A stretch of DNA of 64,000 bases. Source: Tetradesmus obliquus. Lineage: Eukaryota > Chlorophyta > Chlorophyceae > Sphaeropleales > Scenedesmaceae. The stretch's first letter is position 1. Each line of letters opens with the position of its first letter. The notes beneath the pieces are model-generated. The model saw only the letters and a program-made list of their open reading frames with translations, searched no databases and was not told where the DNA came from. The stretch lies in contig CP126200.1 in the NCBI GenBank assembly GCA_030272155.1, positions 3,348,001-3,412,000 of the forward strand. Direction: 5' to 3'. This document shows positions 1-56,900 of this stretch, one piece after another. Position numbers and translations under genes: made by a program.

Positions 1-3000
1 CGCAACATCACCAAGCTCGAAGGGGTGAGGGGCTGTCGGGGTTCAAGGGCTGACGTGTGGTTTTGATGTCCAAGGACAACAGCAGGCGACCCACTGTGGA
101 GCTTGTTGCATGCTAGCGGTTGGTCTGCAAGTATGTCACAGCATATGCTGCAGTGCCGATGTGATTGCAGGCAGAACAACATCGCATCAGTGATGCGGCA
201 TCATGCAAGCTTTCGTCAGTACTGAAGAGTGCTGATGCTTTCAGGTTCCCAATCAACCAATTGTGCAATCGACTAACCTGATTGTACAAGCACACGCCTT
301 GCGCGCCAGAATGTCGTGCAAGAGGTGCGCAAGGCAGGCCACCAACAGCCGTCGGCTTCAAGATTAGTCGTTGGCTGCATTTCTGACTGTGCAACGTCAT
401 GCCTTGCAGGAGGTGCGCAAGGCGCAGGCCGCCAACCGTGCGCGGCTTGATGAAGTGTAAGCTCTTGCTGCATGTCTCATGCTGGACCTGTGCATGTCTG
501 CGCCTGTTGTCTCACTGGAGGTGCGCAAGGCGCAGGCGGCCAGCCGTGCGCGGCTTGATGAGGAGCAGGCAGACTTGCCCTATAGTAACTCTGACCTGTA
601 GGACCTGTGTTTCTGCACTTACTGCATTGCAGGAGGTGCGCAAGGCGCAGGCAGCCAACCGTGCGCGGCTTGACGAGGAGCAGGCAGACTTGCCCTATAG
701 TAACTCTGACCTGTAGGACCTGTGCGTTTCTGCACTTACTGCATTGCAGGAGGTGCGCAAGGCGCAGGCCGCCAACCGTGCGCGGCTTGATGAGGAGCAG
801 GCAGACTTGCCTTATTGCAACTCTGACCTGTATGACCTGTGCATTTCTGCACTTACTGTTTCACAGGAGGTGCGCAAGGCGCAGGCGGCCAACCGTGCGC
901 GGCTCGACGAGGAGTACCGGCGGCTGGTGGGCAACCTGGTGGAGGCGCAGCAGCTGCGGGGCGGCGAGGAGTGGCTGGCCAATCCAGCACTGCCCGAGGA
1001 CATCGTGAGGGAGAGCATGCCGGGTGCGGCGCGTTGCATACACCTGCCAACAGCCTGCTTGAGTCGTCTTTGTTTGTGTGCTTCGCGGCGCTGAGCCTAG
1101 TTGCGGAGCAGCTCGCACCTGCTGGGCGGGCTCAAAGCCAGCGTGGCTGTTGTGACTTGATGCTCTTGCCAAGTTGCTGGCTTGCCTTAGTTTGCGCCCT
1201 GCTGCTGGCAGGTGCCACAGCGCAGCCAACTGTTGTCTCTCTTTGCATGCTTGCCACACGATGACGTCCTACGGGTGCCGTCACATTTGCCAAGCACATG
1301 TATAGAGCACCTTGTGCACAACAACCTCCTCCAAACGCCCAATTCTTTGCTCACCCTTCCCTCCCGCGCACCGCACGCGTACACATGCTTGCAGGCAACA
1401 TCAGGCGCGCAGAGCACTTTATTGGCTTCCTGCGGCGTTTTGTGGCGCACTTGTACGAGCGCATGCGCACGCCCGCGGTGGTGGCGGAGGGGCCCGCAAG
1501 CTTCCTGGGGGGCGTGCAGGCAGCAGTGGCAGTGGACGCAAAGACGCTACGGTGCGCGCTGGGCGGAGGTTACGTGAGGCTTAAAACCTGCTTATACCTA
1601 TGCACAGATTGCTGCTGCTACTGGTACTGCAGAACAACTGCTGGTACTTCTGCAGCTGCCTGCCTTTCTGGCTCCCCCCATCAGCGCTACAGCGTGCTTG
1701 CACCCTGGGTACCCAACCTCACCACCCGGCATCTCTTCATCTGACTTGCCGCTCAGGTTCTGCTACGACCGGCTGTCGTCGCTGTTGAAGACGCTGGAGA
1801 TCACCAACACCGACGACTTTGGGGCCATCCAGATGGTGGCGGACTTTGGCACGCTGCTGGGCACATACAGCAGGGGCTTTGCTGTCATCATCGAGCCGTA
1901 TGACGAGCGCTTGCCACACATACCAGACCCAGTGCTGCAGCTTAGGTGCGTGCTGACATGGCTCTGAGTGTACAGGATGTTGATGTGTGCTAGAATGTTG
2001 GTATTTGGGTCCTGCACGTCCTGCAGCTGCAGCTGTGCGCCAGAGACACCTGCGTGGGCTGTGCAGCTGCACCATGCATGTCACATGCATGTGCGCTTCT
2101 GCCACCCCTCCCCCCCCCCCCTTGTGCTTCTGCCTCACTCCAGCCCTGCCATCGTTGCGCCGCTGCTGCTCACACACATATGCTTCCGTCTACATGCTCA
2201 CCTCATGACTTGCCTCATCTGCTGCTGCCGCTGCAGCTGCCTGGACGCGAGCCTGGCGATGCGGCCTGTGTTCAGCCGCTTCCAGAGCGTGGTCATCACC
2301 AGCGGCACGCTGTCCCCCCTTAACCTGTACCCGCGCATCCTGGACTTCCACCCGGTCAGCATCGCCAGCCTCAACATGACGCTCACGCGCGACTGCCTCT
2401 GCCCGGTGGTGCTCACACGAGGCACAGACCAGGTGCGGCTGGCAGAGTGGTGGGGGGGGGGGGAGGGGGCAGGACGGATGGGAGGAGTTGGTTTTGTGTT
2501 GATTGCCGTGTAGGGCACAGAGTGATGATACTGACATGGGGTAAAAGGGCAGAGCTTGTCAGGTTGCAGCAAGGCAGCAGCAGTAGGTTGGCGCTGAGGA
2601 CAGCCGCCATCTTAGCTCGCAGTATATTCGCTTGTGCATGAGCAGCATGTGCGCAGTTGCACAATGTGCGCAGGTCATGCGCAGCATTCCTAGAGGAGGC
2701 CATTGCGTGCTCTACCTGCATGAGATGCACCTGCCGACGAGATGCTGTTCAGCTGGCCATGATTCTCATGTAACTACAACTACATAATGATTCACATAGC
2801 TTATTTCCTGCAGGTGTCTGTGTCCACGCGCTACGAGCAGCGCCTGGACGAGGGCAACCTGCGCAACTACGGGCGGCTGGTGGTAGAGCTGGCCACTGCC
2901 GTGCCTGACGGGCTGGTGGTGTTCTTCGTGAGCTACAGCTACATGGACTACGTGATCGCGCGCTGGCACGAGGACGGCATCCTGGCCGACCTCATGGAGC

Positions 3001-4663: not shown

Positions 4664-7600
4664 ATGGGCTGCTGTGGGGGCGAAGAGCCGGAGAAGCAGG
4701 TGATTGCACTCTGTCGCCAGGCTGCAGCAGCAATGTAGAGGACGGGCGATGCAACAAACCCATTTACGCTATGAAATTACTTGTAGTTTTTGTGTGGTAG
4801 CTGCTACAGATGTCAGCTCGGCAAGCAGTACTGTACAGCATGTCAGCATGTGCTGGCTGCCACCCTTGGTGCCACTGTGCACGTTGCCTTGCACCCATGT
4901 ACATCAAGGCAGCACTGAGCAAACATGCACTGTAACGCTCTTGTTCCATGTAACATGTTTGCTTCAGGGAATGGTGGAGAACCGCAGATGCAGGGATGTC
5001 CTGTTCCTGCTGTTGTTTGTGGCCTACTGGGTGGGCATGTTCATTGTCTGTGGCATTGCTTTCCAGTCAGGTGAGAAGCCACTGCTTGCTTGCATTGCAT
5101 GTGTGAGGCACAGCAGCTGCATGCAACGAGATGAAATTAGATATCAGCTGTATAACGCAGCTGCCGCCCTTGAATGTCCCCTTGCGTGATTGCTGCCATG
5201 CCAATGACTGGCGTGCGCTGTTTCTGGCGCGTTTGCTGCTGCAGGCGATCCAAACAGGCTCATCTATGCCATCGACTCACGTGGTATGCTGTGTGGGTCA
5301 GTCAACACGTACGAGAACACCACCATCGACCTGACAGACAAGCCAAACCTGTACTATCTGAATGCACTGGACCTGCTCAAGGTCAGCAACCTGATGTACG
5401 CCAAGACCATCTGCGTCAGCAGCTGTCCTATGGTGCAGGAGCTGTGCAGCATTGGGCAGCTGCCATGTACCAGTAACGATCAGTACATGTAAGTAGCAGA
5501 GCACAGACAGCGCTGCGGTCCCGATCATCTGCAGCCACTTGAGATGCAGCAGCAGACCAGCGTGTGCATGCTGTTGGCGGCATGTCTTTCCCATAGCCTA
5601 TGCGCTGCATGGTGTTCATGACGCAGTTTTACAGCAGCCTATGCATCTGCGGCAGCTGCACAGCTGTGGCCTGTGCAAGGCAGCTGACGCCAAGAGCAGT
5701 ACATCATTGCAGACGGCTGTTGCTCTTCTTCTGTCCTCAGGTGCCCCTACTACCGCTTTGCTGAGGACAACCTGTATGGCAAGCTCAGCAGCGTCAACTC
5801 CACCGCAGCAGTGAACTACTGGGACCAGCTGCCAACAGCGCAGCTTGACAGCTGCGACGGCTCCTTCCTGCAAGTGAGCAAGCAGCAAGTGCGCCCTGCG
5901 ACAGCAACAGGCAGTAGCACAGCTCAAACACAGCAAGCGGCATTGGACCCTCCTGCCAGAAACGAGTGGCTGACCGGTGCTTCTTCATACACATACAGCA
6001 GCTGGCTGTCACATACGTTCTGATGCCTGCTGTGGTAATCCCTTTTCATAATTCCTGCTGTCCCGGTTGTGGCACTTCACAGGCTGCCCAAAGCACCGCA
6101 GGCCTGGACCTATCAGCGCTGGGTGTCAACGTGAGCATGTGCGACGTGGCGGCAGGCAGCAGCATTGGCGGCAAGTACCTGCAGGCACAGAGTCAGTTCC
6201 CAGGCAAGGGACCCTGCTATCCTGTATGGGCATCAACAGTGCCCTATTTCAACAGGTGCGTTGCTTGCAGCTGTATTGTCATCAGCGTTGTGCACCCTCC
6301 TGTGGCTGTTGGACTGCGCTCATGCACTGTCAGTCATTCAAAGCAGCGGTAACCAATGCAGCCGTTGTGCACATTGCTGTTGCAGTGCGTCATAAAACAA
6401 CAAGCATGCTCCCAGCTTCATGCCACAAATAATGTCTGCTTGCTGCTGCTGCAGGTGCTTCCCCAAGTTCCCTGAGAACTTCACCAGCAGCGTGTACTCC
6501 ATGATGGACACCACCAGCGGGGTGCTGCAGAGCGCGACCGGCACACTCAAGAATGCATTCAGTGCCACTGGGCCGCAGTTCAGCCAGCATGTCGCTGACA
6601 TCAGCAAGGGCGTGCTTATCATTGTGATAGGCGGCCTGGCATGCGGGGTGCTGCTGTCGCTGGTGAGTGTAGCAGCAGCCCTGCAGAGAAACCATCAGGG
6701 GCAGGGTGCAGGAGTAGCAGAGTCAGGTGCACAGCTTGCTGTGCAGTTGGCGCATCGCAGCAGCTAGCGGCGCGGCATTTGCAAGGGGCCAGGTGTATGT
6801 TGTTTGTACCTACTGCAATGTCTGTCAGCAAGCCAGCTGAGAAACACCGTGTCTGCTGCACTGTGCGTGCAGTTCTGGATGCTGGTCCTGCGCTACTTTG
6901 CCGGCTTCATGGTGTGGGCCACCATAGCTGTGGTGAACGCTGGCCTGGTGGGCTGCACCCTGTTTGCCTACAACACAGCAGGCATGCTGACACAGGCTGG
7001 GCAGTGGGGCGCAGCCATCTCAGCACAGTTGCCGCCGATGTCAGACCCAACAGGCGAGCAACGGGCCGGACAGCATGACAGGGTAACCTAGCGTGCTGCA
7101 ATTGCTGCAACCATCTTGGCGCGCACATCGTGCCCAATAACAGCAATTTTGAACATGCATGATCTAAAAAGCACCGACATATCATGGCATATACAGCAGC
7201 GTAACAAGCTTATGTTCGTTGCTGCTGCTGTGCAGGCATGACCAGAGAGAACTGGAGCTACATCGCATACGCCTTGACAGCTGTAGCCGCGCTGGTGTTC
7301 TTGCTGACGTTGGTCATGCTCAGCCGAGTGAAGGTGGCGATTGCATGCATCAAGGTACGTGCAGCATGCTGCTTCAGCACAGGGAGAAACAGATGCAGCA
7401 CAACATCAAACATGAGCTTCCAGGAATGCTGGAATCCTTGAGCAGTTGTCCGGCGGCCGCAGTCACTGCTTGCCTCTCTCGCCCATAGCAAAAAGCAACT
7501 AGCAAGCACCACATGTTAATCTTACGCTGTGTTGTGCTGTATGCTGCTGTGTGCTTGGCACGCACCATTTGCAATGCAGGTTGCCAGCCAAGCTGTGTCC

Positions 7601-10821: not shown

Positions 10822-12083
10822 ATGCTGATGCGTTGTCGTGCTCTCTGCTGTAGATGTTTCCTGCAAACACAGGGGGCTGGGCATCTTGCAGGAGCACCAA
10901 GGCCGGCACAGGCACAGCTGCAGCAAGGTGGCCGCCTTGACCGTGCAAACGGTGCCACTTCAGAGCAGCATCATGCTGGTCAACAGTGGCTTGTTCGGCA
11001 GCAGCAGCAGCAGGGTCATCGCCTGGCAGAGCCGAGTTCGCTGATGGCTTATTCCGACCAGCCTGTTGCTCACCAAGCACAGCTGCAGACAAGCCCAGAG
11101 CCCTGGCAAGCTCACCAGCAGCAACAGCAGCAGAACAAGCAGCAGCACCGCCAGCAGCATGTGCGACAGCATCAGCAGCTGCTGTCATCAAGTAGTTCAG
11201 CCTTGCAGGACATCAGCAACCAACAGCAGCAGCAGCAGCAGCAGCAGCAGGCAACAGCCAAGGGCAGCTGGGCATCAGGTGGGCCAGCAGAGGAGCAGCT
11301 CCTGCAAAGTCACCCAGCAGCTTGGCAGCAGCAACAGCAGCAGAGTTGCCAGCAACATTATCAGCAGCAGCCAAATCAGCAGCAGCAGCAACAATGGCAA
11401 CAGCAAGGGAGTGCTTGGGGCCATCCGCCACGCTCAAGAGCATTAGGCTCGGGCAGCAGCTGCTGTCCTGCAAGCAATGCTGGTGGCACAACTGTTACTG
11501 ACAGCACTCAGGCAGCAGCCCCGCTTGCAGGAAAGGGCGGCACATGTAATGACCTTGAGCTGGATTATAAGAGCTTGTTGGCGGACGATTGGATCCAGGA
11601 ACAGGACCAGCAACAGCCTCACCAGCAACAGCAGCAGCTGCTGCAGCAGGCACGTCCAACCCAGCAGCACCAGCAGCAGCAGCCACTGCAGAGAGCTGCA
11701 CTTGAAACGGGGTCAATTGCCGCAGGTAGCCATGGACCTGTTAGCCTCGGACAGCTGCTGCCTGGCATGATCAATCATGCACAGCGGCAGCAGCAGCAGG
11801 GGCAGCAGCAGCGGGGCCAGCAGCAGCGCGGGCAGCAGCAGCAGGGGCAGCAGCAGGCGCAGCAGTGGCAGCAAAGGCAGCAGGTACACTCTAGCAGCTG
11901 GGAGCAGCAAGCCAACCTGCAGCATGGCAACCAGGCACAAATGATGCCTGAGCAGCACAACCCGAGACAACTGCAGCAGCAGCAGCCTTCAAGGTATGCA
12001 CAAGCAAGGCAGGGGCTCCACAATGCCATTCCCAGGCCCGCTGCTGGCACAGGACATCCTGTGCTTGTGCCGCCAGAACAGCT

Positions 12084-12130
<47 letters not shown>

Positions 12131-12550: not shown

Positions 12551-12586
<36 letters not shown>

Positions 12587-27483: not shown

Positions 27484-30400
27484 ATGGATAGTCTGCTAGA
27501 CTTCGATCAGGAGTACCTAGAGCCTCCTTGGGGCCCTTACGGTCGGGACCTGACCCTAGGCATCGTCTCAGTGGCCAGCAAATTCATCCTGCAAGTGCTA
27601 AACAGCACAAAGGTGATCAACCATGAAACATACAAGGAGCTAGTGCACAACCGCCCAGAGGGAGTGGGACTGCTGACCATCAGCAATCACACCAGGTGCG
27701 TCACAGGCTGCAGTACCTGCTGCGCTGCTACTGCTGTCATCCAGCAATCTACTATGCAAGGCGACGGCTGTGCTGCTCTTGGCATGCTTGATGAAGTAAG
27801 AGTATGTAAGCTGTGCGCATAAGCCGTAGGGGTAGGCAGCAGCGTGCCAGGCGCAGCAGCATGCAGCCAAGAGCCACTCCCAGCACTGCCCTGCCAAGGC
27901 CCTCTTGTACTGTGCATGTGCAGCATATGAGCCTCTGCTGCAAGGAGCACCGCAGTATGTGTGAAGGCCGACTACTTGTAGCAGCTGCTCAGCAGTGTCT
28001 GGTCACCCCTTATGATGCTCCTCATCACTAAGCGGCTGCCTGCAGGGTTGCAGGCTGCGCCACAGCCAGTCAGCGTGTACTGCTGCATTCGAATCAAAAC
28101 AGCCACCAAGTCAACTGCGCCAGGCAGTCCGCACATCTGCTCCTAGCACCGGCTGAGCGACGATGCTCTGTTGAGTTACCTTTGCGCATCTGCATCTGTG
28201 ATTCACATGTGCTGCTGCTGCTGCTGCTGCTGGGCTGCAGCACATTTGATGACCCTGGGCTGCCGTGTGCGATGCTGCCGTGGCACTTCTTCTGGACGGA
28301 GCACAGCCACTGCAAGAACCGCTGGACCATGTGCGCCAGCGACATCTGCTTCACCAACGAGGTCTTCAGGTGCGGCGCTTGGGGAGGGGGCCGGGTGAAA
28401 GCACAAGCAGTGGACAGCAGCGTGCAGCAGTGTGTAAGTGCAGCTGCTTCACCAACGAGGTCTTCATGTGCGGCACTGCGACGATCAAGGTCCCACTGCA
28501 ATGTACAGCAACCTGCAGCAGTGCCTACGTGACTAGTGACTGGACATGTAGCACAGCAATGCTCAGCAGCACAGTGTACGGCAGTGCCTGCATCTAGCTG
28601 CTTTCACCAGCGAGGTCTTCCAGTACGGCGCTGGCAGGGATGGACAGCACAGCAATGTACAGCAGTGTACAGGAATGTACAGCAATGTACAGTATTAGCG
28701 TGACATACAGCGCTGTACAGCAGTTTGCCTGCTGAGTTGCTGCAGCTGTTACTCAGCAGTGCAAGCAGAGTCGAGCAGCAGTGGTGCAAGCATACGTCAG
28801 ACAGCAGTGAGCAGGCAGTGCTCAGCTGGCGGCAGCAGCGGCTGCAGCGAGTGACACTATTGTAGACGTACATACCGACACCAGCGATACGTGCTGCCTT
28901 GGCTGCCCAGCCGCCATGCAGGCTGCTGCAATGTGCAAACTGCTGTGTCTCAAAACCCTATTCAAGTATTCATCATCATCCTTGCTGAAACTTGCGTACT
29001 ACATAATCCATTGCAGGCAGTTCTTCCTCAATGGCAAGACGCTGCCAGTGGAGCGGGGTGCAGGCGTGGGCCAGCGCATCATGGGCGTGGCTGCACGGGC
29101 GCTGGCGCAGGGCGAGTGGCTGCACATCTTCCCTGAGGGCCGCGTCACGCCTGACGGGCGGGTGGGCCCCTTCAGGCAGGGCATTGGGCGGCTGGTGTGT
29201 GATGCCAAGGAGGCAGCAGGCGGCAGGTGGGTGACTCTGAAACAGGCAGTTGTGGCGCAGGACGCTGCCTGCTTTGTGATTGTGTCACATGTCATGCGTG
29301 CAGCAGCAGAGTATAGGCTTGTTTTCCTGCACAAGTGCCGCATGCGGTAAGCTCAGGGGCAGTGGCTGCACATCTTCCCTGAGGGGCGCGTGACGCCTGA
29401 TGGGCGGGTGGGGCCCTTCAGGCAGGGCATAGGGCGGCTGGTGTGTGACGCCAAGGCAGCAGCAGGCGGCAGGTGGGGGCAACAGGGAGCTTGGGGCCTG
29501 GCTGTGCATCGCAAGGTGGCGCCTGCTGTGTGTGCGACGCTATGTGCGCGGTGGCAAAGTGCACAGATGGCCATTGTCGCAAAGGCACCTGAACCTGTTT
29601 GTGTGTCGCATCTGCATTGCATCTGTTTGCGTTGCAGATGGCGATGCGCTCGCCATTCCTGACATTGTTTTCCGACATCTGCCATGAATCAGGTCTTTGG
29701 GTGCTGCTAGTGCCTGCGCTGCACAGATCATCACATGCATTTTGCTGGACAACGTACGCATTCTGCTGTAGCTGTTCATACATGTGTGACAAGTTTGTAC
29801 TGCGTGTGTAACACCTCTCTGCAGGGACCCAGTCATCCTGCCCTTCTTCCACAGCCACATGTCCCGCGTGATGCCCTTCAAGTCGGCAGTCCCCCGTGCG
29901 GGACACACCGTGACGGTGGCTGTGGGCCAGCCGCTGGAGCTGGGACACATCACATGCAGGTGCAACCAGCCAGGTGAGCAGCCAGGGTGCAGGTTAAGGT
30001 TGTGGATGACTTGCCGCACCAAAACAGGCCAGCCTCAGCCGCTGGCTCCGGGACACAACACCTGCAGGTACAACCAGCCAGGTGAGCAGCCAGGTCGCTT
30101 GGTGCAGGTGTTGGTCTGGTTTTCATCACTGGCATGCAGTGCGGCTTGGCTGCTGAGCTGGCCTGCCGCAGCTGTTGAGCTGCTGAGCAGGGGCCTCACC
30201 ACAGGCAGGTGGGCAGGCAGCACAGCTGGCTGTTCTCTGTTGCCGCATGGTATGTGTGCTGGTATTAATCCAGCTGCTGCTGCTGCTGCTGTGTCGGACA
30301 CGTGACTTACAGGTAGCCTCCTGCTACTCTGTATGCTGTGAGGTTCTTGGCCTGGGAATGCATAGTAAGACCAGTGCATTTCGTCAGTGCTCAGATGTCG

Positions 30401-31656: not shown

Positions 31657-34600
31657 ATGGAGCTAGAGATGAACCCATTCAGCCTGGCCTTCAGGTCACC
31701 ACAAGTGGAGGGCGAATTCCTGCAGGTGATTGCTAAATGAGCAGCAACTGTGCATCACCAACATGCGTCAGCCAGTTTGCAGTTGGCGCAAGCAGCTGGT
31801 GTGAAGGCAGCAGGGCATCACAGCAGCGTGCGCAGCATTCGCGTTGCATGGTCACGCATGCGCCATTAATTTCACACTGGTTTGGAATTTAGAGGTTGTG
31901 CAGACCTTGGTGCTGCACCTGATGTGTATGAGTGCATCGTGCTGAGGGCAGCACGGCGCATGCATGGCATGGGCCTTGATAGCCACATGCAAACGGCGCT
32001 AAACAGTTGCTTCTTGCGCACACCAGGGCGTCAACTTGCGGCGTCGCTGCAAACCGTCTGCGTGAGCAGCCTGCCAAACTTTTGTTCCATTGTGCTGCTG
32101 CTTCTGCCACTGCCGCTGCTGCTGGTGCCTGCAGGAAGTGGCGAACAGGCGCTGGCCGGTGCTGATGTGGGTGTTTGCCTTTGACGTGTTCTGCTTCATG
32201 TTCCGCTTCATTGCGAAGCTCACCGTGGCAGGAGACCAAGGTGCGTAGCAGGCAGGCCAGGAAACAGCAGAGTTGCAGCAGCAGCAACAGTAGCAGCAGC
32301 ACCAGCAGCAGCAGCAGCAGCAGCGTCTAGCTCTGCGTCGCGTGCTAGTTCAACTGCTGCTGGACTTACAGCAGCGACGGCAGCATGGCGATGTGTGGTG
32401 CTCCTTTAAGTGCACAGCAGCAGGGCGCTATGCTGTGCTTTTAGTGCCGGTTGTTGCAACACACTTGAAAGTGGAAGGTGAAACAGTGTGATGGCTATGG
32501 CAAGTTCACAGCTGCATACATGTGTTGGTCTGCATTGCACCCGCTGCGTACACCCTGGCTGATGCCGTAGCAGCAGATACAGGTGCAGGCTTGGTGATTC
32601 CAGCAGCTGCACCTTCCAACCATATATTTGACAAGCTCTACACATTTGTTACATTGTTGGCTGTGCATTTTGCGCTGCAGCGGCTCTTGCGGGAGGCAGC
32701 AGCGGGCGCCCTTTTGAGGTGGTGCAGGAGATGGGCCACCAGCTGGCCAACATGGCCATGCTGTATGTGCTGATCGGCCTGCTCAACAAGCGCGCACGCA
32801 CGGCAGGCAACAACGCAGCGCGGCAGGTGCGGAGAAAGGGCTTGGGGCAAGCGGTGCAGCGCTGCGGGCGGAGTAGGCAGCAGGAAGATGAGAAGTAACA
32901 GTGTGCGGCGCAGCAGCGGCAGTTTGCTGGTGGTTGGTGGTGTGGATAGCGTGCTGGGTGTCTGCATTGGGACGTGTGAAATGGGCCACCAGCTGGCCAA
33001 CATGGCCATGCTGTACGTGCTGATCGGCCTGCTCAACAAGCGCGCCAGGACGGCAGGCAACAACGCAGCGCGGCAGGTGCGGGGACAAGCCCGGGGCAGC
33101 AGGGGCGCTGTGCGCGAAAGATGCGGCAGCAGAGCTGGCGGCAGCAGCAGTGGCAGCAGCAGAGGCAGGTAGCTGGCGGCAGGTGGCGGTGAATGGGCTG
33201 CTGGGTGACTGCAGTTGCTGGGGACGTGCTGAGCTCTCTGCATTATTTCAAGTGCAAGTGCAGGGATGTTGGCGGCAACAGCGTGCAGCAGCTGCAGTGC
33301 TATGTCCATCTGCATGGGCCTGGCCATTGAAGATTGTTGTTCTCTGCTGCCGCCGCCGCTGCTGCTGCTCCTCCTGCTGCTGCTGTGCTGCAGGAGGAGG
33401 TGTTGCTGTCCATCTGCATGGGCCTGGCCATCTGCAACCTGCTGGCCAGCCTGCGCACAGACAACGCGCAGGACTACGTGTACGTCTCGTACTTCCTCAT
33501 CTGTGAGTGGACGCTGACGCCAGCTGTGCAGCTCGCTGGGGTAGTAGCAGTAGCAGCCGCAGCAGGGGCACCAGGGACATTCAATTGCAGCAAAGGCAGC
33601 ACGCGCAGCAAATGCAGCAGCATCAATCGCAGCAACAACAGCAGCAGTGGCCCCTTATATGCAAAATCTGCTGTAGGCGCCAGCACCCTGTTCAAGATCT
33701 GCTGTGGGTTTGAGAAACGGCAGCATTCATTCATACTATAACCTGTTTCGTATTTCTGCCGCGCCGCAGGCACCAGCACCTTCCTCAACATCCGCTGGTG
33801 GGTGGGCACGGGGCTGCTGGCCACTGGGTTGCATACACACCACAACACAGTTTCAAATCCACTAACTTTAAAAACATATCATACTTACAAACCTGCCGCA
33901 GGCACCAGCACCTTCCTCAAGATCCGCTGGTGGGTGGGCACGGGGCTGCTGGCCACGCCCATGGTGGCGGTGCAGTGCTGGTACGCGAGCCCGGCGCCCT
34001 CAGCGCTGCTGCCGCCTGATGCGCTGGTGCACATCTTTGTGGCGTGGGCGGTGGGCGGGCTCATGGCATACCTGTCAGACTGGTACCGCAGGTGGGCCTT
34101 GTGTAGGGAGGAAAACACTCGTGTGTTTGGTTTTGACGGAGATGTGGTGTGCTTGGTGGTTTGCGTGATGCTTGGATGCATCGTGCCTCGTATGTGTTGC
34201 GTGCGTGCTCTTGGGGTTGCTGTTGCTGCAGTGCCATGCAGTGAGTGGTGGGCTCATGGCGTATCTAGTTGGACTGGTACCCCCTCTAGCACATCTCATC
34301 TCACGTGCGCGCATATCCTCCACTCCGCGCCCGCAGGCAGATGTATGAGAATGCGCGCCTGTGTCTGGCTATGTCACTCTGTTTCCTGTTTGTGACAGCA
34401 TACCCCTAGTGTCCTCGTATCTTACGCCTTCTTTCAACGCGCACACATCCTTCGCACCGCGCCCGCAGGCAGATGTATGCGAATGCGCGCCTGGCGTGTG
34501 CCGCTCACGAGAAGGAGATGATGGAGGCGACAGCACGCATCCAGGTGAGCCGCATGAGCGGCAACCAAACTTCAACTGAACCTTCCTTTCTGAACTGTTC

Positions 34601-36463
34601 ATATGCCGAAATCCACCCAGCCAAGCAATGAAAGCGCTTGGAAATGCACTGATGAAGGGCAAGATCAGCGCGATTCAGTTGCCTGACAACGATCGGCACG
34701 CCAGCCAGCAAAGCAGTAAGCAGTAAGCGTTGAGATGTGCAGCGCCGCAGCAGGCGCCAGTCCATCACGCTCACCAACATACTTCTGTTTGCAAATGTTT
34801 CTGGTTGCACACTGCAGGCGCAGCGGGAGCTGGCGGCAGCGCAGGCGCAGGCGGCGCAGCGCGCGCTGACCGTGGCACGGGAGAAGGCGGCGCACGAGGT
34901 GCGGCGCGGCGGTGTTAATCACAGGCCGGTTCACGGCTGGCTAAAGGCGTTACGGGTTGTATCAAGCGTTGTCAGGGGTTGTCTCAGGCTTCAGGGGTTG
35001 TCTCAGGCGTGTTTGTGCAGCTGGCGCGCTTGCCGCAAGGCACAGACGTTGCCGGGCGCCCGTGCAGTCCATGGCCAGTGGCCTGTGCAGCTCTGTCTGG
35101 CCGGGACTGTGCCCAAACGCAGACCTGAGGCGGTGCGTCATTCATCACCTGGGTGTTGCTGCGCCTGCAGGCCAAGAGCGAGTTCATGAGCCTGTTGTGC
35201 CGCTGACACTCTACCAAGCGCTGACATTCTGCTGCTTCTTGCCTCGCTGCGCTTCTGCTGCGTGTGCCTGCAGGCCAAGAGTGAGTTCATGAGCCTGATG
35301 TGCCACGAGGTGCGCACCCCGCTCAACGGCTGCCTGGCCAGCGCTGAGATGCTGCTGGAGACACCCCTCAAGGTGCGGTGTCAAGGCGTGCGTGCATGGG
35401 TTCACCCTGTTGTGGCTCATATCATCTCATCTCAGCTGGTGCTTGGACCCACATGCAATCTTCCTTTTTCACATGCTTGCTTGTGTATCTGCTGTCATTG
35501 CTTGCCGCTGCCATTACAAAATTTGCCGATCAGTTGCTAGGGTGTTGTTGTTTGCTTGGTTAGCTAGGGTTGAAGTATGTTTGAAATGGTGGCAGGACAG
35601 CCAACCACAGCACAATAAAGGAAGCTTTGTAGTCAGCTTACACCTGACCTGGTTATGCTGTGCTGCTGCGCTGTGCTGCTGCCTCTGTCGTCTGCTGCCG
35701 CAGGAGGAGCAGCGTGAGCTGGCCAACACCATCCGCGTGTCAGGCTCCATCCTGCTGTCAACAGTCAGCAACTTCCTGGACTTTTTCAAGTGAGCCTGAC
35801 GCAGCTACGGGTGTAACATGTTATGAAACGTCATATCATATGTCAGTTGTGTAGCAGCAGCATGCTTGGTAGTTTGGGCTGGCGCATTACCAAGACACCA
35901 CACTCATGTATGCCTGCTCAAGCTAAGAATGGCGGCTGTACCTGGCTTGCGTGGCGCATAGGCAACACAGATCTGCATGCAACCTCCTTACCCTGCATTT
36001 TAACTTCGGACGCGCTTGTTGTGCCCGCTCTGCCTGCAGGCTGGAGGCGGGCAAGCGGCTGGACATTGTGCGCAGCGAGGTGGTGCCGGCGCACCTGGTG
36101 GGCGACGTGCACTGCATCATTGAGGCCATGATCGGCAAGGGTGGGCCTGTGGCACTGCAGCCCCCACAGCTGGCGGGTGTGCCTGAGGTGAGGGGGCCTA
36201 CAATGGTGTTGCTGCTGCTGCTGCTGCTGCTGAGGGCTGCGATGGCAGCTTGATTGGACAGCGATTGCATGAGATAGAAGACGGGATGGGAGCAGAGTGC
36301 AGGGTGGGATGTAAGTTGTAAAGCAGCAGCTGCAGCTGGGGTAAGGGTGGCCACAGCGGCTGCGTGCAGAGATGTGCACTGCATCATTGAGGCCATGATC
36401 GGCAAGGGTGGGCCCGTGGCGCTGCAGCCGCCACAGCTGGCGGGCGTGCCCGAGGTGGGTGGG

Positions 36464-36512: not shown

Positions 36513-37855
36513 GTATGTGTCAGCAGCTGTGTTGGGTTGCACAGCGCGTGTTTGCGGATGATTTTGGAGCTTGCTTTGCAGCTGCAGCGTAACACATGTG
36601 TTCTTGTCCTGATCACTGCACTCCTGCTGTTGTGCTGCATCCTGTGGCACCCTGCTCAACCTGTACAGCGCCCCGTTGCTGCCGCCGCCGCCGCCGTCGC
36701 CGCTGCTGCTGCTGCAGTACGTCTTCTGCGACCCGGACCGCCTGCGCGGCATCCTGCTCAACCTGTACACCAACGCAGCCAAGTTCACCAAGCGCGGCCA
36801 CATCGTGCTGCGCGCGCGCTGCGTGGCGCGGGACTACACGCCGCCTGCGCCAGCCGGCTATAGTGCCATCATGTTACAGCCCAGCTACCACCCCAGCAGC
36901 AGCAGCCACAGGTGAGGCTTGAACAGCAGAAAGACCCTCTGCATGTTGGCTGGTGTACATCTGCATTCCGATGTGTATGTGTAGCAGTGTGTCGGGGGTC
37001 ACGTGCTTTGAAACTGATGTGTGTTGCTGCAGCACGGTGCAACCGCTGGAGTTTTGTGTAGCTGTTTGGTTTGTGCATTTGGCTGCTGATCATGTTATGA
37101 GTGGCGCTGACAGCTGGTCGGCTACAGTGCCATCATGCTGCAGCCCAGTTGGCAGCCCAGCAGCAGCAGCCACAGGTGAGAGCTGGTCAAGGATTGATCA
37201 AGCCAAGCAAGTTGACGCAGGCTGCAAGGTAAGATAAGGTTTCCCGCGAAGCAGGGATCTTGAGACAGCGAGGCAGCTTTGTCAAGACGGCTGGTGTACG
37301 TGTGCATTCCAATGTGTGGGTGTAGCAGTGTGCTGGTCTGCCAGAAATGCTGCTGCACTGCGTTGTGTTGCTGAACACCCCGCCTGCGCCGGCCGGCTAT
37401 AGCGCCATCATGCTGCAGCCCAGTTAGCACCCCAGCAGCAGCAGCCACAGGTGGGTGTCTTCTAGTTGAGCTGCGGCTCAAATCAGCGATTGTATGTCTT
37501 GTTGTGATTGGCGCGCCAACTGTCATGCTAGTGGGCGGACTTGATGGTGCTAGCAACTCAATGGCAGCAGTACAACAGCAGCAGTAGCTGTCATGGCTGT
37601 GGCCGCACGATGCCCATTGGAGCGCATGCATTCCTACTACGACTGGAAGCAGCAGCCCATGGCGCTGCCTGCTGCTGTCTGCTGTTGTTTCTGCAGGAGC
37701 ATGGACATGTCCAGCTGTGTGGTGCTGACGCCGCCTGCTGCTGATCAGCCGCAAGGCAGCATGAGCCGCGCGGAAGTGCTGCAGACAGCGGCAGCGCCCG
37801 TCGCAGCTGCTCCTGCTGCTGCAGATGACTCAGACAGCAGCAACCTGGAGCCACC

Positions 37856-37905
<50 letters not shown>

Positions 37906-37927: not shown

Positions 37928-37966
<39 letters not shown>

Positions 37967-39313
37967 GTTCTGGCAGCAAGCGTCGCAGTGGGCCCTCAAC
38001 CTGCTGCCTGGTGAGCTTGCAGGCAGTCAGCTGCCTTCTGCTGCCGCTGCTGCTGCTGCTGCCGCTGCTGCAGCAGCAGCGTGCAAACACGATGGGCTGA
38101 GCGGCTCTGCAAAAGCAGCTCAGTTTGATGTGCATGCAATGAGCGGCCTGAAAGACGGCCTGCAGGATCCCCCTGCTGCTGCTGCTGCTGCTGCAGATCC
38201 CGCAGCCGCAAAACCACCACCAGCAGCAGCAGCAGCGGCAGCAGTGCTGGCTGGCGCGAGTCAGAGCAGCCTAAGCGGCAGCGGCGGCAGGCGCAACAGC
38301 ATGAGTGGCAGCGGCAGCGATGTGTCTTGCTGGCTGCTGTTTGAAGTGGAAGACACAGGGGTGGGCATCACCCGGGATGGCCTGGCCACGCTGTTCAGGG
38401 AGTATGTGCAGGGCACAGAAGATGAGATGTGCAAGCCACGCACCAGAGGCGGCACCGGCCTGGGGCTGAGCATCTGCAGCAAGCAGGTGAGGCATAGTGT
38501 TATACGTTAAAGACGCTGGATTTGATGAGTGGATGTGATGCACTGCATGCGTGGGAGTGTCCTGGGGCTGAGCATCTGCAGCAAGCAGGCGAGGCGCTGC
38601 ATCTTTGGCACTGCATCTAAGGTGCTGGTTGTGGGGCACTGCATTAGTGGCACTGGCCTGGGGCTGAGCATCATCTGCAGCAAGCAGGTGAGGCGCTGCA
38701 TTCAAGGTTGTGGCTGGTGCAGGCGCCGCACCAGGCATTGCGCTTCATCTCAATGAAGCCCCTGCGCATGTGTCGGGCAGCGCCAGAAGGCAGCTACGCA
38801 CTTGTCTCCCACGCCACCACCTGCTCCTGATGTTGCTGCTGGCGTGTTTGCAATGCACCTTTGCTTTTCTGCTCTTGCGCAGGTGGGTGTGCTGGGTGGC
38901 GTGATTGGGGCCCACTCCTGCAGGGGCCATGGCTCCACCTTCTGGTTCAAGATCCCCACCTACATGCGCCCCTCCAGGAGCAACAGCAGCAGCCTGGGCA
39001 AGCAGCAGCAGCAGGAGCAGGTGCAGCAGCACCCGCGGCAGTCACTGGAGCGGCGGCGGAGAAGTGTCTCAGCAGATGCACCGCGGTCGTCAGGGCAGCA
39101 GCAGCAGCAGCAGGAGTCTGACTTGGCACGAAGCAGCAGCAGCAACTCGAATACAGGCACCTACACTGTGATACACAGCGGGCTGTACCACCCTAGCCAA
39201 CCCCTGCCCAAAAGGTCAGACGAAGCAGCAGCAGGCAAGCAGCAGCAGCAGCAGCAGTCGGCATCATTGCCAGAAGGTTCTGTAGCAACAGCCGGCGGCA
39301 GCAGCAGCAGTGT

Positions 39314-39344
<31 letters not shown>

Positions 39345-39458: not shown

Positions 39459-39491
<33 letters not shown>

Positions 39492-40565
39492 CCGTCTGCC
39501 CTCAAGCCACCCCAGCCACGCGGCGCTGCGTCAACTGCAGCTGCCGCCGCTGCCAGTGCATCAGCTGCAGCAGCCTCATCTGCTGCTGCTGCTGCTGCTG
39601 CTGCGCCTGCTGCGGGCGGCAGCAGTGTTGCGGGTGGTGCAGCTGCTGTGCCTGTGCGTGCGCGGCAGTCGCTGAGCCTTGACGGGCGGGCGCCTCCTGC
39701 GCTGGACACTGCGCGGCTGGTGGGCAGGCGGGTGCTGCTGGCTGAGGACAACCTCATCAACCAGGTGCGGGCGCAGCACCTTACTCACCTCACTTATGCC
39801 GTATGTATGTGGTTTCGTAGGCACTTGTAGCCAGGTGTGCTGAGGCTAACGTCACCAATTAGGTGCGGCTTCCTCAAATGCATTCACAGTTTCCGCCGTA
39901 TGTTTGTACCCTCGCTGCACTGCCAGTGCAGCCGCACACACCTCACCTTCGGCAGACACCTCCGGCAACGCTGCGTCTTGCTCCTCGCCTGCAGACCGTG
40001 GCGCGCAAGATGCTGAGCAGCCTGGGCATAACAATAAACACATTGTATCTATTTGCACATAATAACAATTAACTAACCTTTGGTGTTCGACTTGGTCACT
40101 GTCCTGCCTGCAGACCGTGGCGCGCAAGATGCTGAGCAGCCTGGGCATGCACGTGGAGGTGGCAGTCAACGGCCTGGAGGCACTGCACGCGGTGCAGCGC
40201 ACAGCGGCACAACAGCAGCAGCAGCAGCTAACCCCTGCCACCAGCAGCAGCAGCAGCACGGACGACAACACCAGCAACAACAAGCCCGACAGCAGCGGTG
40301 CAGCAGCTAGCACTCCTGCGGAGCAGCCGTTTTCCATTGTGCTGATGGACATGGCAATGCCGGTTATGGGTGGTGTGGAGTCCACGCAGCAGATCCGATC
40401 TCAAGGCTTCAACTTGCCGATTGTGGCCATGACGGCCAATGCGAGTGACAAAGACAGGGACGAGTGTGCGGCAGCAGGCATGAACGGCTTCCTGAGTAAG
40501 CCGGTGCTGAGGGACCAGCTGGCCCGGGCGCTGCTGGCGGCGCTGGAGGACTATGATGGGACGAC

Positions 40566-50903: not shown

Positions 50904-53900
50904 CTACCGCTTCTTCTTGCCCTTGCTGCCCTTTTTGCTGCTGCTGCCCTTCTTGCTGCCAGCCTGCTTTACACCCCCACCAGCTACCACACTGCCACCC
51001 CCACCACCTGCTGTTGCTGAATCCCCCAGCTCTACCCCATCCTGCCCTGCTGCTGCTGCTGCTGCTGCTGCTTCACCCTGCTGCTGCTGCTGCCTGCCAT
51101 GCCGCAGGCCCTGCATGGCCTGCTGCCCCGCACTGCTGTGCCGGCCAAAGAAGCTGTTCAGATCCATCTCACTCATGACAGCCCTCATGCTGCGCATTGG
51201 CACCAGCACAAGGCTGCTGTCGCTCTCGCTGCCGCTGCTGCTGGCTACATCCGGCCCACTGTCGGTTGAGTGCCAGTGCACTGTGCTGTCGGCAGCGTTG
51301 CTGCTGCTGCCGCTGCTGCCGCTGCTGCTGCCAGCTGCAGCTAGGTGCAGCTTCAAGCTGAGGACCTGCCGCCGCCTATACAGCTTGCCGCTCACAGCAG
51401 CAACAACCTGTGCGCCTGCTGCTGCTGCTGCTGTGCTATCTAGGGCAGCTGAAGCATCACTAGCAGCAGCACTGCCTGATCCAGCAGCAGCAGCTGCAGA
51501 GCCAGCTCCAAGCACAGGCAGCAGCGGCACCTCCAGGGCAGCAAACCTGCCAGGCACTTTGAGCAACAGCCGCTGCAGCTGCGGGCCAGCATTGACCACA
51601 TCCACACACACCTGAGAAGCTTGCTGCACGCCCGGCAGGTGTGCACGCAGCTGCAGCAGCTCGGGCCCGACACGCTTGAGGCTGTACACCACTGCTGGCA
51701 AGATGCTGCTGCCATTTACAGCTGCTCCTGTTACTGATTCTGCTGCTGCAGAGCCATCCTGCTGCTGCTGCTGCTGCTGCTGTTGTGTGTCGGCGGCTTT
51801 CCGGAATGAGCTGCTGCTGTCTGCGCTACTACCGATGCGTGAGTCATCCTGCTGCCGCTGCTCTGGGCTTTGTTGCTGCTGAGGTGTAGCTGCTGCCCCC
51901 GCTGCTGCTGCTGCTGCAGCCGAAGGCGTGGAGCAGCCCGAGCTGCCTGCACCAGCTGCTGCTACCCCAGGTGAGGATGACGTCAGTGATGCTGCCAGCT
52001 CCTCCTCATCTTTGCTGCTGCTGCTGGCAAGCTCATCCGCCATCCTCACAAGCGCTGCCGGCGCAGTTGACACCCGCGCCAGGTGCTCTGACGCCAGCGG
52101 CTGCTGTTGCTGCTGCATTGCTGCCTCCTCCGCTACTCCATTGACAGCAGCAGCGTCCTGCTGCTGCTGGTGCGGAGCTGCTGCTGCGGGTGTAAGTGGC
52201 CGTTGCCGCTTGTAGCCCGGCTGCGGGGCGGGCTTTGGCGTGTCACGCGTGTAGAACAGCATGTATGCATTCTGGCTGAGCACGCGTGAGGGGCTGGTGG
52301 GGGCCACTCGCGCATCATCGCAGATGTACCAGCGCCCGTCCGCTGTGCGCACAAAGCAGATGTAGTGCCCGAAGCTGGTGGAGTTCATCTGCGCAGCAGC
52401 AGCAGCAAACACGCAGCAGGGTCAGCACAGGCTGCAACAATGAAAACTGCTGGTGTTTGAGTGAGTTAGTAGCCAGGACCCACAATCAACACATCTCTCG
52501 TTTCAGCCTAGAAGCAAAATATTGTCTAGGAAGGCCGCACCTAGTCCAGGTGCACGATCACACCCGACAACGTTCAAATGACCGGCAGAGCAACAGATGT
52601 GAAGATGCAGTACACCGCAGAAGCAGGCAAACCTCTCCTCACCTGGTCCAGGTGCCGACGGTCACGCCTGTCAGCTGCCAGCCGACAACCCAGACCACCT
52701 CTTGACCCCGCCTCAACACAACACCATTACCGTGCATGCCATCAAGCCACCAACTCCAAAGCCAGCTGGCAGTCACGCTCACGATTCTATCAAATGAGTG
52801 GAAAAGGTGGCCGCACCTGGTCCAGGTGCACGATCACGCCGCTCAGCGTGTAAGTGACTGGGCCCTCGTCCATGGCCTGCTGCGCCATGAAGGGAGACAG
52901 GTCCAGCGCCTCGCCATACACCAGCACCTGCAGAGCCAGAAGACACAGCACCCAGCACGGCGCGTGGATCATCTGTGCAGACATAAACCCGAAGTGTTAC
53001 GTTTGCTGACACTTGTCGCCTGACAGATGCCGGAGTTCAGCTAGACAACATAACAAGTTGACTTACGCCAGCCCACTTGTGATTGAAGCAGACAGCTGCT
53101 CACACCCGCCGGCACTTGCATTCCTAACAACAATAACATACAGAAATGACAACAAAGTGACACCAAAGTAACAACAGCGCCCCGCACCTTGTTGATCTTG
53201 CCGAAGCGGCCCGTGCCGAAGCGCTTGAGGCACAGCACCAGGCTGTTGGGCGCCACCTCAAAGCGCGTGGAGCGGCACGCGCGGCAGCGCCGCCCGCAGC
53301 CGTCACACGCGTAGCGGTTGTCCCCGTCCAGAACCTCCTCTGCGGGGGTGCAGCAGCAGCAGCAGCAGCAAATCTGTTGAAACGCTTGTGGTGTTCTTGC
53401 AGCGTTGCCCGCAACTTCACACGCAAAGCGGTTGTTCCCATTCAGCAGCCTCCCCAGTGGGTGGACGGTTGTAACATAGTAACAGCAAGGATTGGCAGCG
53501 TAGAAACAACGTACGTCATGCAGGTGGTGGTGATGAGGCGCAATGGTGACATTCCACGGTAAGTAAGTAGGATTCCAGTCCCTACCTGCAGTGTGCCGCG
53601 CAAGTGCCAGCTGCGGGTCTGGCCATCACCCAGACACCGCCCATTACTAAACCTAAAAACTTACACCCACCTGCGGTGTGCCGCGCGAGTGCGTCCTCCA
53701 AGCGGTCCACCCCCCCCGGGCACCTCCAGCTGCAGGTCTGGCCACCACCCAGACACCAACCATTACTGAAGCTGAAACCTAAACACTAACACCTACCTGC
53801 GGTGTGCCGCGCGAGTGCATCTTCAAGCCGGTCCACGCCCCCAGGCACCTCCAGCTGCAGGTCTGGCCATCGCTCAGACACCTAGTTTTGCAGGATGCTA

Positions 53901-56900
53901 CACTCCACCACCACAACAACACCCATCTGCACAGCGCCAGCGCCAGCGCATCCTCCAGCCTGTCCTTGGCCGCAGGCAACATGCTTTATGCCGCATGCTT
54001 TAAACCCTTGGGTAAAGACACATAACTTGTTTCAGATACAACCACTTGAAACTATCTTAACCACCCACCTGCGGTGTGGCGCGCGAGTGCGTCCTCCAGG
54101 CGGTCCACGCCCCCAGGCACCTCCAGCTGCAGGTCCAGGCACGCCTCATAGCGGCGGCTGGCAGCGCCGCAGCCGCCACACACCACCTGCAGCACAATGG
54201 CAGTACAACAACAGAGCATGAGGCAAATGCTTTGCTTGGTAACAAGGCAGCAGTGTGGCCCTGTTATGAGCTGCAGGTCAAAGCACGCCTCGTGCAGCCT
54301 GCTGGCGGCGCCGCAGCCGCCACACACCACCTGCAGCAGGCGGCATACAAAAGCACACGCAATCAACAGCCATCCGGCGGAAAGCGGCACAAACCGACAC
54401 CGGGAGGACCGTGAAAACGTGTCAAGGCATTGGAAGCGGAGCAGCAATCTGGTCATATGATGCAGCAGGCAGTTGTAAAGCCACTGCAACAGTTGGGGCG
54501 GGAATAGTGGTGTTGGCACTTTGTTGTATGGTGGGCAGCAGATGCTGCCTGCAGAGTGCAGCACGCACAACATGCGTCACAGCTGACCAGTTGCTGAGAA
54601 TGTGCTATGCACCGTTGCTGGTGCCTGCCGCTGCTGCTGCTGCTGCCGCTGCGCACCTGGCTGCGCAGGTAGCCTCCAAACACGTGGTGCACCAGCGTAG
54701 TCTCCTGCGTGCTGCAGCAGCACACAAACACACAAGCACGCACCACAGTAGCAGCAGCAGTACACAACACGTAAACAATGGTCATTGAGGTAAGTCCCAC
54801 AAAGGGCCGGGATGAGCCAGCAGAAGAAGCAGGCTGAACCATCTGAACATAGCAGTCCCAGCCTTACTGCATGTCGCACCGCTCCTTGCTGCCATACTCA
54901 ATCAGCGACTTGTTGACTCAGGCTTTTAATCCCACCCCCACAACGCATATCGACACGCTCCTTTCAGCCATAGCTTGAGCAGTCTTTTTTACAAAAGGTG
55001 AAAACAGAGCTAAGCCTCCGCTGCCCCCTCACCGCATGTCAAAGCGCTCCTTGCCGCCGTAGTTGGTCAGCTGGATGGCCTCCAGCGTGTTGAGCAGGCT
55101 GTAGAAGAACTCGTGCGCGTCCTCCTGCCGCCCCAGGCTGAGCGTCTTGGCAAAGCGCCGCAGGTGGCTCAGCAGCGGCCGCACCGACACCTCCGAGCCA
55201 ACAGGAGCCTCCGCCATGCGCTTGCACAGCACCTGCACACATGTTTGAGTGTGAATGGATTTGTCATGACGTGTTATGATGTTATGGTGCGAGTTGGGTG
55301 ACATCAGCAGGCAGGTTGCATGTTTGGGCCATATGCTTGCATAGTGCGCGGGCTCTTACAACACTGCTACAGAGGCCATGATACAGCGGGTGCTGGCCGC
55401 TGATGCACCCTGCTGTGTTTATTCGCGCTACAGCCACAGCTGGCCGACGCCGCTGCTGCTGCTGCTGCTGCTCACACCACTAAGCCCCTTGCTGCATCCA
55501 CCTGGCTCAGCACACATCTCAAGGGATACACATAACAGCCCACCACACAGCCCCGCTTGCTGCCTGCTTGGCCGCTGCCAGCCCTACACTGCTGGCCCTC
55601 CCAGTGCTGCTGCTGCCACTGCTTTCCTGCATGTCACTGTGCAGGCCACTGCTCCCCTTCGCGATGATAGCCACACACACCTGCAGCTGGCACAGTAGGC
55701 ACCACTCGTTGCCGGGCTTGTTGCAGTCCCTGCTGTGCAGCCCCTGGTCCAGATAAGCTCGCAGCGGCCGGCTAGCCAGCAGGCACTGCAGCGCCGAGTT
55801 TGCATAGCAGTTGTTGCCGTGGTTGGTAAGCCCAATTGGCGGCCGCCTGCAGCTGGTCCTGTTGTGGCAGAGCTGCAGGTAGTGCTGGTAGGAGAACAGC
55901 ACCTGCCGCGGCACTGGCGCATCCTCATTTGGGTCGAGGGGTGGCGGCTTGCTGAGGCTGCCGTTGCTTGCAGGATGGCCGCTGCTGCTGCCCAGTGCGG
56001 CTGCTGCAGTCTGCGCAGCAGCCTGCTTCTGCAGGTTGTCGCATTCAAACTTGTGGTTGGAGCCCCAGTCCTTGCGCTGGCATGCTATCGAGCTGCGAGG
56101 TGAGTTGGCAGCAGCAGCAGAGCCATAGCCAAAGACAGCAGGGGCAGGCGCAGAGAGAGGCAGGGTGAGCAGCGATACAGCAACAGGAGGCAGTATACAT
56201 GATGCAGGTGCGTAATGTACCGTGCACCAGAACCTGCAGCCATTACTAATAATTTATGGGCAGTATGTGCCGAGCAAGGCCCTGCTGCCCTTGTTGCGTC
56301 ATCTTGGCTTCGACGCCTGCTGCCCTCACTGTGCGTTTGATACATCAGTGGCGCTACTTCATCCCAGCAGGGAGTGCGCGCTGCTGTTGCACGCACAGCT
56401 GCTGGTGCTGTAGCTGAAAGATGTATGGTGTTAAGAACACTGAGTCAGACACATTGAGTGCCACGACCGCTACTGCCTCTCCGCATGCCATGCTACTGCT
56501 TGCTGCCTTGCTACTGCTTGCTGCCTGCTGCGTGCTACAGCCCGGCATGGCTCCTGCAAGCAGCTCTCACCAGTACTTGACAGACTTGCACCTGCTGCAG
56601 TGCGTGGTGGTGGGCTTGCTGCAGACTCTGCACAGCCCCGCATCAATGGACATCCGTCTGGCGATTGCTGAGCGCTCCCACCAAGGCTCCCCGTCTAACG
56701 AGGTCCTAGCAGCAAACACGTGCTGCCGCAGGTCCTGAGAGTCCCGCCACAAGCCCGCAATACTGCACCACAGTAAGATCACAGAGGCTTGAAGCTTCGA
56801 CAGCGCAAACAGCAGCGCAAAGACAGCTGGAGGGCACTGCTGTGGTGGCAAGAGCTGCTAGTGTGCCTGATGATTGAGACGCAGCTGCGGCTCGACAGCC

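What the first reader, a model, noticed from the sequence alone, without database searches (positions are those of the whole stretch)
300..54915. Window-wide habit: partial exon copies planted in adjoining introns of at least five unrelated genes
XPD, tafazzin, the histidine kinase, the USP and FAS1-b all carry short same-strand copies of an exon end with its splice site and some flanking intron, at roughly twenty locations. The geometry is strict: acceptor-side copies lie upstream of the intact exon (XPD 407-751; kinase 33764, 35164, 39989; USP 54331), donor-side copies lie downstream (kinase 32983, 36370, 37117, 37385, 38563, 38648; tafazzin 28448, 29351, 30036; USP 52533, 52639, 53587-53868, 54870). 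Because copies include intron bases they arose from DNA, not spliced RNA. Inference: frequent tandem duplication across exon-intron borders, of which only those leaving one intact exon survive. The CTL and MSH7 genes next door seem free of it, so it is not a uniform assembly artefact. I know of no named system that does this.
Basis: partly seen in the sequence, partly recalled or inferred. Interest (0 to 1): 0.88.

Follow-up and report, generated by a model that had tools for sequence, protein, structure and literature searches.

The report
Exon-edge tandem duplications in algal introns
In this green-alga-like genome about one exon end in eleven, in the part examined, has one or more worn copies of itself in the neighbouring intron, apparently left by repeated short tandem duplications across the exon-intron border, which may be a way in which introns grow.

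Summary
It is not confined to the window: 81 of 912 predicted exon ends have an intron-side copy; no local inverted repeats. Fifty-base exon ends hit the correct adjacent intron 29 times, the wrong side 6 times, distant introns 0 times on the same strand. Copies lie at preferred distances, about 118 and 250 bases. They decay much like junk: stop share and indel lengths match neutral expectation, with little sign of mini-exons. Pooled tests find faint intron similarity past the splice site even where BLAST sees none, so intron was probably duplicated too. In two fresh arrays middle units are chimeras of exon and older copy, as unequal exchange predicts. Best reading: recurrent short tandem duplication across borders plus unequal exchange; arrangements leaving a spliceable exon survive. 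Unexplained: exon-copy differences are too synonymous (ratio 0.22; a neutral copy predicts 0.5), unit length is narrow, and intron-only pairs are scarce. All rests on a home-made gene finder, one assembly and 264 kb.

The parts
400..914 (+). XPD: array of acceptor-side copies, period about 117; the intact exon start lies in the last unit, about 867
   Evidence: TRF 517-914 period 117, 3.4 copies, 93%; pairs
28441..28477 (+). Tafazzin: donor-side copy of exon end 28343-28379
   Evidence: 92% over 37 bp, offset 98
29351..29477 (+). Tafazzin: donor-side copy of exon end 29105-29231; 8 synonymous and 2 amino-acid codon differences
   Evidence: 91% over 127 bp, offset 246
30036..30094 (+). Tafazzin: donor-side copy of 29928-29986
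   Evidence: 90% over 59 bp, offset 108
32978..33213 (+). Histidine kinase: copy of exon end plus intron (32728-32966); intron half visibly more diverged than exon half
   Evidence: 79% over 243 columns, offset 250
33763..33824 (+). Histidine kinase: acceptor-side copy of exon start 33895-33956
   Evidence: 98% over 62 bp, offset 132
34307..34361 (+).
   Evidence: 89% over 55 bp, offset 132
35160..35201 (+). Histidine kinase: acceptor-side copy of 35263-35304
   Evidence: 93% over 42 bp, offset 103
36371..36457 (+). Histidine kinase: donor-side copy of exon end 36104-36190; all 6 codon differences synonymous
   Evidence: 93% over 87 bp, offset 267
37119..37180 (+). Histidine kinase: donor-side copy of exon end 36855-36916
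   Evidence: 89% over 62 bp, offset 264
37375..37453 (+). Histidine kinase: second donor-side copy of the same exon end (36836-36914), with an in-frame stop
   Evidence: 91% over 79 bp, offset 539
38561..38701 (+). Histidine kinase: donor-side copies of 38451-38602
   Evidence: pairs 38451/38649 (91%) and 38459/38561 (77%)
39982..40029 (+). Histidine kinase: acceptor-side copy of 40102-40148
   Evidence: 98% over 48 columns, offset 120
52533..52585 (-). USP: donor-side copy of exon end 52809-52861, 2 in-frame stops
   Evidence: 81% over 53 bp, offset 276
53607..53882 (-). USP: two donor-side copies (53664-53738, 53790-53863) of exon end 54062-54135; codon differences all synonymous (4 and 5), one 1-base gap
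   Evidence: TRF period 125, 2.3 copies, 84%; 93% and 92% to the exon
54269..54338 (-). USP: acceptor-side copy of exon start 54125-54194
   Evidence: 87% over 70 bp, offset 144

Best explanation
The copies are relics of short head-to-tail tandem duplications (unit mostly 90-160 bp, also about 220-285 bp) whose unit spans an exon-intron border. After a duplication over a donor, the first donor still ends the exon and the second exon end falls into the intron; over an acceptor, the last acceptor is used and the first exon start falls into the intron. The opposite outcomes damage the mRNA and are lost, which gives the side rule. The copy is inert and decays; the duplicated intron piece becomes unrecognisable sooner than the exon piece, so exon edge plus the constrained splice-site bases (to +5) stay visible. 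Exon and copy can then recombine out of register and add units. Shown: tandem arrays, preferred unit lengths, chimeric units in two arrays, neutral stop and indel patterns, residual intron homology in pooled tests. Inferred: that the copies in general arose this way, the selection filter, and unequal exchange (possibly between diverged haplotypes) as the main engine. The cause of the initial break or slip is unknown.
For: Local repeats are direct, none inverted. TRF rows (score 60 or more, period up to 500): 22 with period 91-157, 5 with 222-265, one each of 67 and 309, none at 158-221, besides many rows of period 20-45 (some rows describe one array). Fresh arrays with near-identical intron parts: L004_L005 19320-19859 (period 118; intron substitutions 0-0.008), L020_L021 5999-6588 (period 256; 0.005), L018_L019 3-542 (0.008); their exon-like parts differ more (0.029-0.048), as expected if an old exon-copy pair recently exchanged. 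In the first two, inner units have the left flank of the old copy and the right flank of the functional exon. Intron beside the exon and beside the copy is more alike than local null windows: 66 ends, mean rank 0.81, P 2e-10; for the 39 ends where BLAST homology stops within 12 bp, mean rank 0.71, P 6e-5, though only 5 of 39 exceed rank 0.95 (2.0 expected). Copy decay looks neutral: stops 7 of 145 amino-acid differences (4.8%; neutral 4.5%); indels a multiple of three 4 of 26, against 26 of 171 in intron-intron alignments and 8 of 36 on the intron side of the same pairs.
Against: Exon-copy differences are too synonymous for a neutral copy: 145 amino-acid against 244 synonymous codon differences in 80 events, ratio 0.22 (bootstrap 0.17-0.28), where 0.5 is expected; synonymous share 0.63 against 0.43. 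In the 42 pairs whose copy the gene finder calls non-coding the share is 0.54. The intron part is unrecognisable in most pairs, even at 97-98% exon identity (z > 3 in 26 of 95; of six such ends with 95% or more identity one exceeds rank 0.95). Pairs without exon overlap are scarce: 3 of 80 at offsets 75-180 (26 expected from random placement), 1 of 49 at 200-290 (13 expected), 0 of 15 at 95% identity or more (5.7 expected); random duplication does not predict this unless intron-only duplicates fade as fast as the intron parts do. Match length and gap of 57 first-order pairs are only weakly anticorrelated (Spearman -0.23, P 0.08).
Confidence: 0.6

Rival explanations
1. A splice-site-centred copying process: template switching anchored on the splice motif copies only the exon edge and motif into the intron, so border placement is mutational and not a result of decay.
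For: Identity falls sharply after +5 of the donor (0.90 at +5, 0.54 at +6; 52 donor events); most pairs show no intron similarity even at 97-98% exon identity; intron-only pairs 3 of 80, 26 expected.
Against: Pooled residual intron homology beyond the motif; full-length arrays that include intron; copy distances are quantised, which motif spacing would not give.
Confidence: 0.17
2. Assembly artefact: haplotype switches or collapsed and expanded reads.
For: Exon-copy differences look allelic (mostly synonymous); only one assembly was available and no reads.
Against: The intact exon is mostly spared (107 intron-side against 29 exon-side rows); copies carry neutral stops and frameshifts; present in 10 of 11 stretches, with narrow unit lengths and widely differing divergence.
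Confidence: 0.08
3. Functional alternative, mutually exclusive or poison exons kept for regulation.
For: Synonymous excess; splice dinucleotide kept in 74 of 80 copies; some copies were called exons by the gene finder; acceptor-side copies show an excess of donor-like sites at the cut edge (6 of 44 above score 3, 1.4 expected).
Against: At least four of those six rows are cases where the gene finder had called the copy the exon (window 36369, 37418 twice, 53793-53854), so the site is the real donor. No excess of acceptors at the cut edge of donor-side copies (14 of 52 above score 0, 14.5 expected) or of the opposite splice site in the gap (above score 2: 7 of 26, 10.1 expected; 2 of 21, 4.2 expected). 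Offsets modulo three: donor 13/15/14 of 42, acceptor 10/14/8 of 32. Indel lengths and stop share as neutral.
Confidence: 0.05
4. Insertion of introner-like or other mobile elements with long target duplications, the gap being the element.
For: Many pairs read as repeat - about 70 bp unlike sequence - repeat.
Against: Gaps of 47 events show no common family: their 78 non-self matches in the 264 kb look mainly like CTG-type simple repeats or sister units of the same array (read by eye). Of two whole-genome searches, the one holding the 33763 gap found only its own place; the other gave 123 matches, which are itself, its own pair and mostly short pieces of two repeat-like stretches.
Confidence: 0.02
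5. RNA-templated copies (reverse-transcribed pre-mRNA or mRNA pieces).
For: Copies are mostly exon sequence.
Against: They carry splice-site and some intron bases, lie nearby and on one strand, and in the cases read do not cross into the next exon.
Confidence: 0.02

Closest known systems
Small tandem duplications from staggered breaks, filled in by CST/Pol alpha-primase and joined by NHEJ (PMC8355091; passages seen)
   Same: Direct, local, head-to-tail duplications; the paper says natural insertions in humans and plants hinted at this origin
   Different: The paper speaks of insertions under 100 bp; here units are mostly 90-160 and 220-285 bp, seen at exon borders and iterated into arrays; break structure and enzymes not testable here
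Unequal crossing-over / gene conversion in tandem repeats (recalled)
   Same: Chimeric inner unit with duplicated spacer in two arrays
   Different: Homology is only about 60-80 bp between a functional exon edge and its relic
Intron gain by tandem duplication of an AGGT site (recalled)
   Same: Tandem duplication touching splice motifs
   Different: No new intron seen: copies lie inside an existing intron and the copied motif is not its far end in the window cases read
Tandem or mutually exclusive exon duplication (recalled)
   Same: Exon sequence repeated in the adjoining intron
   Different: Part of the exon only, mostly without a second splice site, no frame constraint
Introners (PMC9860276, search listing and start of abstract only)
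   Same: Affect intron content genome-wide
   Different: No shared element sequence found

Membership tests
Short tandem duplication | Head-to-tail, same-strand, local | tested here: met
   37 and 151 direct, 0 inverted local pairs; TRF arrays
Short tandem duplication | Whole unit repeated, no unmatched spacer | tested here: inconclusive
   28 TRF rows of period 91-309; most pairs have a gap, with residual homology only in the pooled test
Short tandem duplication by break fill-in | Dependence on CST, Pol alpha-primase, NHEJ | not testable with these tools
   needs mutants
Unequal crossing-over | Inner unit chimeric, spacer identical on both sides | tested here: met
   L020_L021 A/B/C and L004_L005 u0-u4, of three arrays read; the third, L018_L019, fits a two-unit duplication
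Tandem / alternative exon | Own acceptor and donor, frame kept | tested here: not met
   acceptor-side copies showed a donor-like excess at the cut edge (6 of 44, 1.4 expected), at least four of the six being mislabelled copies
Introner | Similar element at many loci | tested here: not met
   47 gaps within 264 kb; two pieces genome-wide
Intron gain by tandem duplication | Intron length equals unit, copy of exon end at the acceptor | tested here: not met
   next predicted exon lies about 90 to 550 bases beyond the copy in the window donor-side cases read; not counted elsewhere

The most novel reading that the evidence does not exclude
This lineage has a mutational process that acts at exon-intron borders in quantised steps of about 118 and 250 bp, lengthening introns from their edges, with exon and relic copy continuing to exchange sequence; relics then sample old or foreign alleles of the exon, or are held back from decay because harmful changes in them flow back into the exon (a conversion load).
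Probability: 0.2. Interest if true: 0.85.

Novelty: new variant of a known kind. Interest (0 to 1): 0.6.

Why it matters
Relatives of Chlamydomonas have conspicuously long introns lacking the usual short peak, and the paper that reports this leaves the mechanism open (PMC8226300, passages seen). A process that adds units of about 120 or 250 bp next to splice sites is a concrete, countable candidate for intron lengthening, and the copies keep a record of earlier exon edges. Whether it acts in those species was not tested. It would also matter for gene annotation: several copies were called exons by the gene finder used here.

Tried and rejected
Simple view 'copies are mini-exons with their own acceptor': suggested by six window cases, rejected by counts over the 52 donor-side events and by the gaps. 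In-frame extension: offsets modulo three show no bias to zero. TE or introner gap: no family. Direct similarity of the gap to either flank: 6 of 55 pairs above z 3; this first looked like proof against tandem duplication, but the pooled test shows weak homology. Purifying selection on copies as coding sequence: the synonymous excess suggests it, but stop share and indel lengths are neutral; left unexplained. Three-way comparison: changes on the exon or shared stem 24 synonymous, 3 amino-acid; copy-specific 59 and 52; 25 of 390 codons with three states set aside (trios from one array are not independent). A diverged-haplotype source and a conversion load both fit and could not be separated. Ten literature searches (listings read) showed no title or abstract describing exon-edge copies in adjacent introns; the library is partial and the lists were capped. 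The species was not identified; the Rubisco small subunit scores best against chains 1ir2, 7jfo and 1gk8, which I recall to be Chlamydomonas.

Limits: gene models come from a home-made HMM trained on the same 264 kb; it uses little intergenic state and makes some false exons. Dropped before counts: pairs under 45 bits; in the border counts also exons under 30 bp, pairs over 220 columns or with a gap under 10, and (after) the 19-21.5 kb array and exon-side rows; exons under 45 bp and low-complexity ends; exons under 25 bp. One sample (L018_L019) gives 21 of the 81 positive ends. Rows from one array are not independent.
Full report
What was checked. The window is 64 kb of contig 10 of a 104.66-Mb, 17-contig genome. 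I compared the window with itself, aligned 21 pairs and fetched ten 20-kb samples from other places, one on each of contigs 1-10. Later counts are on these 264 kb unless said otherwise.

The copies are there. Sixteen of 18 listed places reach 45 bits. In every sample local direct repeats occur, from 1 to 63 per 20 kb, and inverted ones in none. Pfam confirms histidine kinase and ubiquitin hydrolase domains, gives weak support for the XPD helicase (HBB domain just over the cut-off, helicase domain below it) and no match for the tafazzin stretch read through its introns; CTL, MSH7 and FAS1 were not tested. With these models 81 of 912 exon ends have a copy on the intron side: window 18 of 213, samples from 0 of 47 to 21 of 89. 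Adjacent introns are hit on the right side 29 times, on the wrong side 6 times and on the opposite strand never; distant introns never on the same strand and 5 times on the opposite strand among about 644,000 pairs. Thirty-nine further hits to introns listed under exons up to three away were set aside; many are the same intron listed under its other exon.

Anatomy. The nearest copy of each of the 81 ends lies at 85-140 bp in 30, 141-205 in 7, 206-285 in 30 and elsewhere in 14. In 57 first-order pairs matches average 55 bp and gaps 68 bp. Identity is about 0.9 on the exon side near the border, 0.94, 0.92, 0.85, 0.77, 0.90 at donor +1 to +5, then 0.54 and falling. This follows the splice consensus, so the visible edge of homology is where constraint ends. 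The cut edge of donor-side copies shows no splice-site enrichment; acceptor-side copies show some (6 of 44 above score 3, 1.4 expected), of which at least four come from copies that had been called exons. The gap is not enriched in the opposite site. Copies are therefore, in general, not mini-exons.

How they arise. Three arrays read unit by unit are the key. In L020_L021 5999-6588 and L004_L005 19320-19859 the intron spacers are almost identical, the last copy has its own different downstream flank, and inner units join the left side of that old copy to the right flank of the functional exon. That is the product of out-of-register exchange between exon and copy. The third, L018_L019 3-542, fits a duplication of two units at once. 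In these fresh arrays the exon-like parts differ by 2.9-4.8% while the intron parts differ by 0-0.8%, as expected when an old exon-copy pair exchanges. The spacer belongs to the unit, so intron was duplicated too. For single old copies the spacer is usually unrecognisable, but pooled tests find remaining similarity, also where BLAST shows none. Over the pairs where both parts can be aligned, exon-like parts differ by 9.1% and intron parts by 13.3%, with 4.9 and 11.0 gap columns per 100 (overlapping rows, including the 19.6-21 kb array).

Do copies do anything? Stops make up 7 of 145 amino-acid differences, as neutral; indels are a multiple of three no more often than in introns. Against plain neutrality, the amino-acid to synonymous ratio is 0.22 where a neutral copy of a constrained exon predicts 0.5; the excess is smaller where the copy is called non-coding (synonymous share 0.54 against 0.43 expected). 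Either the two units descend from diverged alleles joined by exchange between homologues, or harmful changes in copies are weeded out because they can return to the exon. Both are inferences; neither was tested.

Is the border special? Local pairs with no exon overlap are 3 of 80, against 26 for random placement. This could mean a process aimed at borders. It could equally be a detection effect, because intron parts fade quickly and intron-only duplicates would fade with them. I cannot separate the two here, and this keeps the splice-centred rival alive.

Known or new. Short tandem duplications are a recognised mutation class with a break-repair route worked out in mouse cells (PMC8355091, passages). 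What I did not find, in ten searches of a partial library, is their concentration at exon edges with preferred unit lengths. I file it as a new variant of a known kind. If it also acts in relatives of Chlamydomonas, it bears on their unexplained long introns (PMC8226300, passages); that was not tested.

Noticed in passing
window 10892-12600, 37840-39650 and many others: Very frequent CAG/CTG trinucleotide runs in predicted exons (poly-Q, poly-A, poly-S) and introns; they appear to cause most far matches in self-comparison.
   Followed up: no
window 19638-21148: Array with units of about 309-331 bp (TRF 20130-21148: 3.2 copies, 92%) in predicted minus-strand exons; left out of the border counts.
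   Followed up: partly
window 24499-24761: 67-bp unit repeated four times, 95% alike, in a predicted open frame.
   Followed up: no
L018_L019 (G000:C8:1200001-1220000): Densest region: 63 local direct pairs and 21 of 89 exon ends with copies, against 0 to 12 ends (median 4) in the other nine samples.
   Followed up: partly
L010_L011 18925-18974 and 19050-19099: A copy whose homology ends at what looks like a stop codon and not at a splice site; exon or gene end not verified.
   Followed up: no
L024 (G000:C17, about 3030000): Rubisco small-subunit gene split over several predicted exons; its protein scores best against chains that I recall to be Chlamydomonas.
   Followed up: partly
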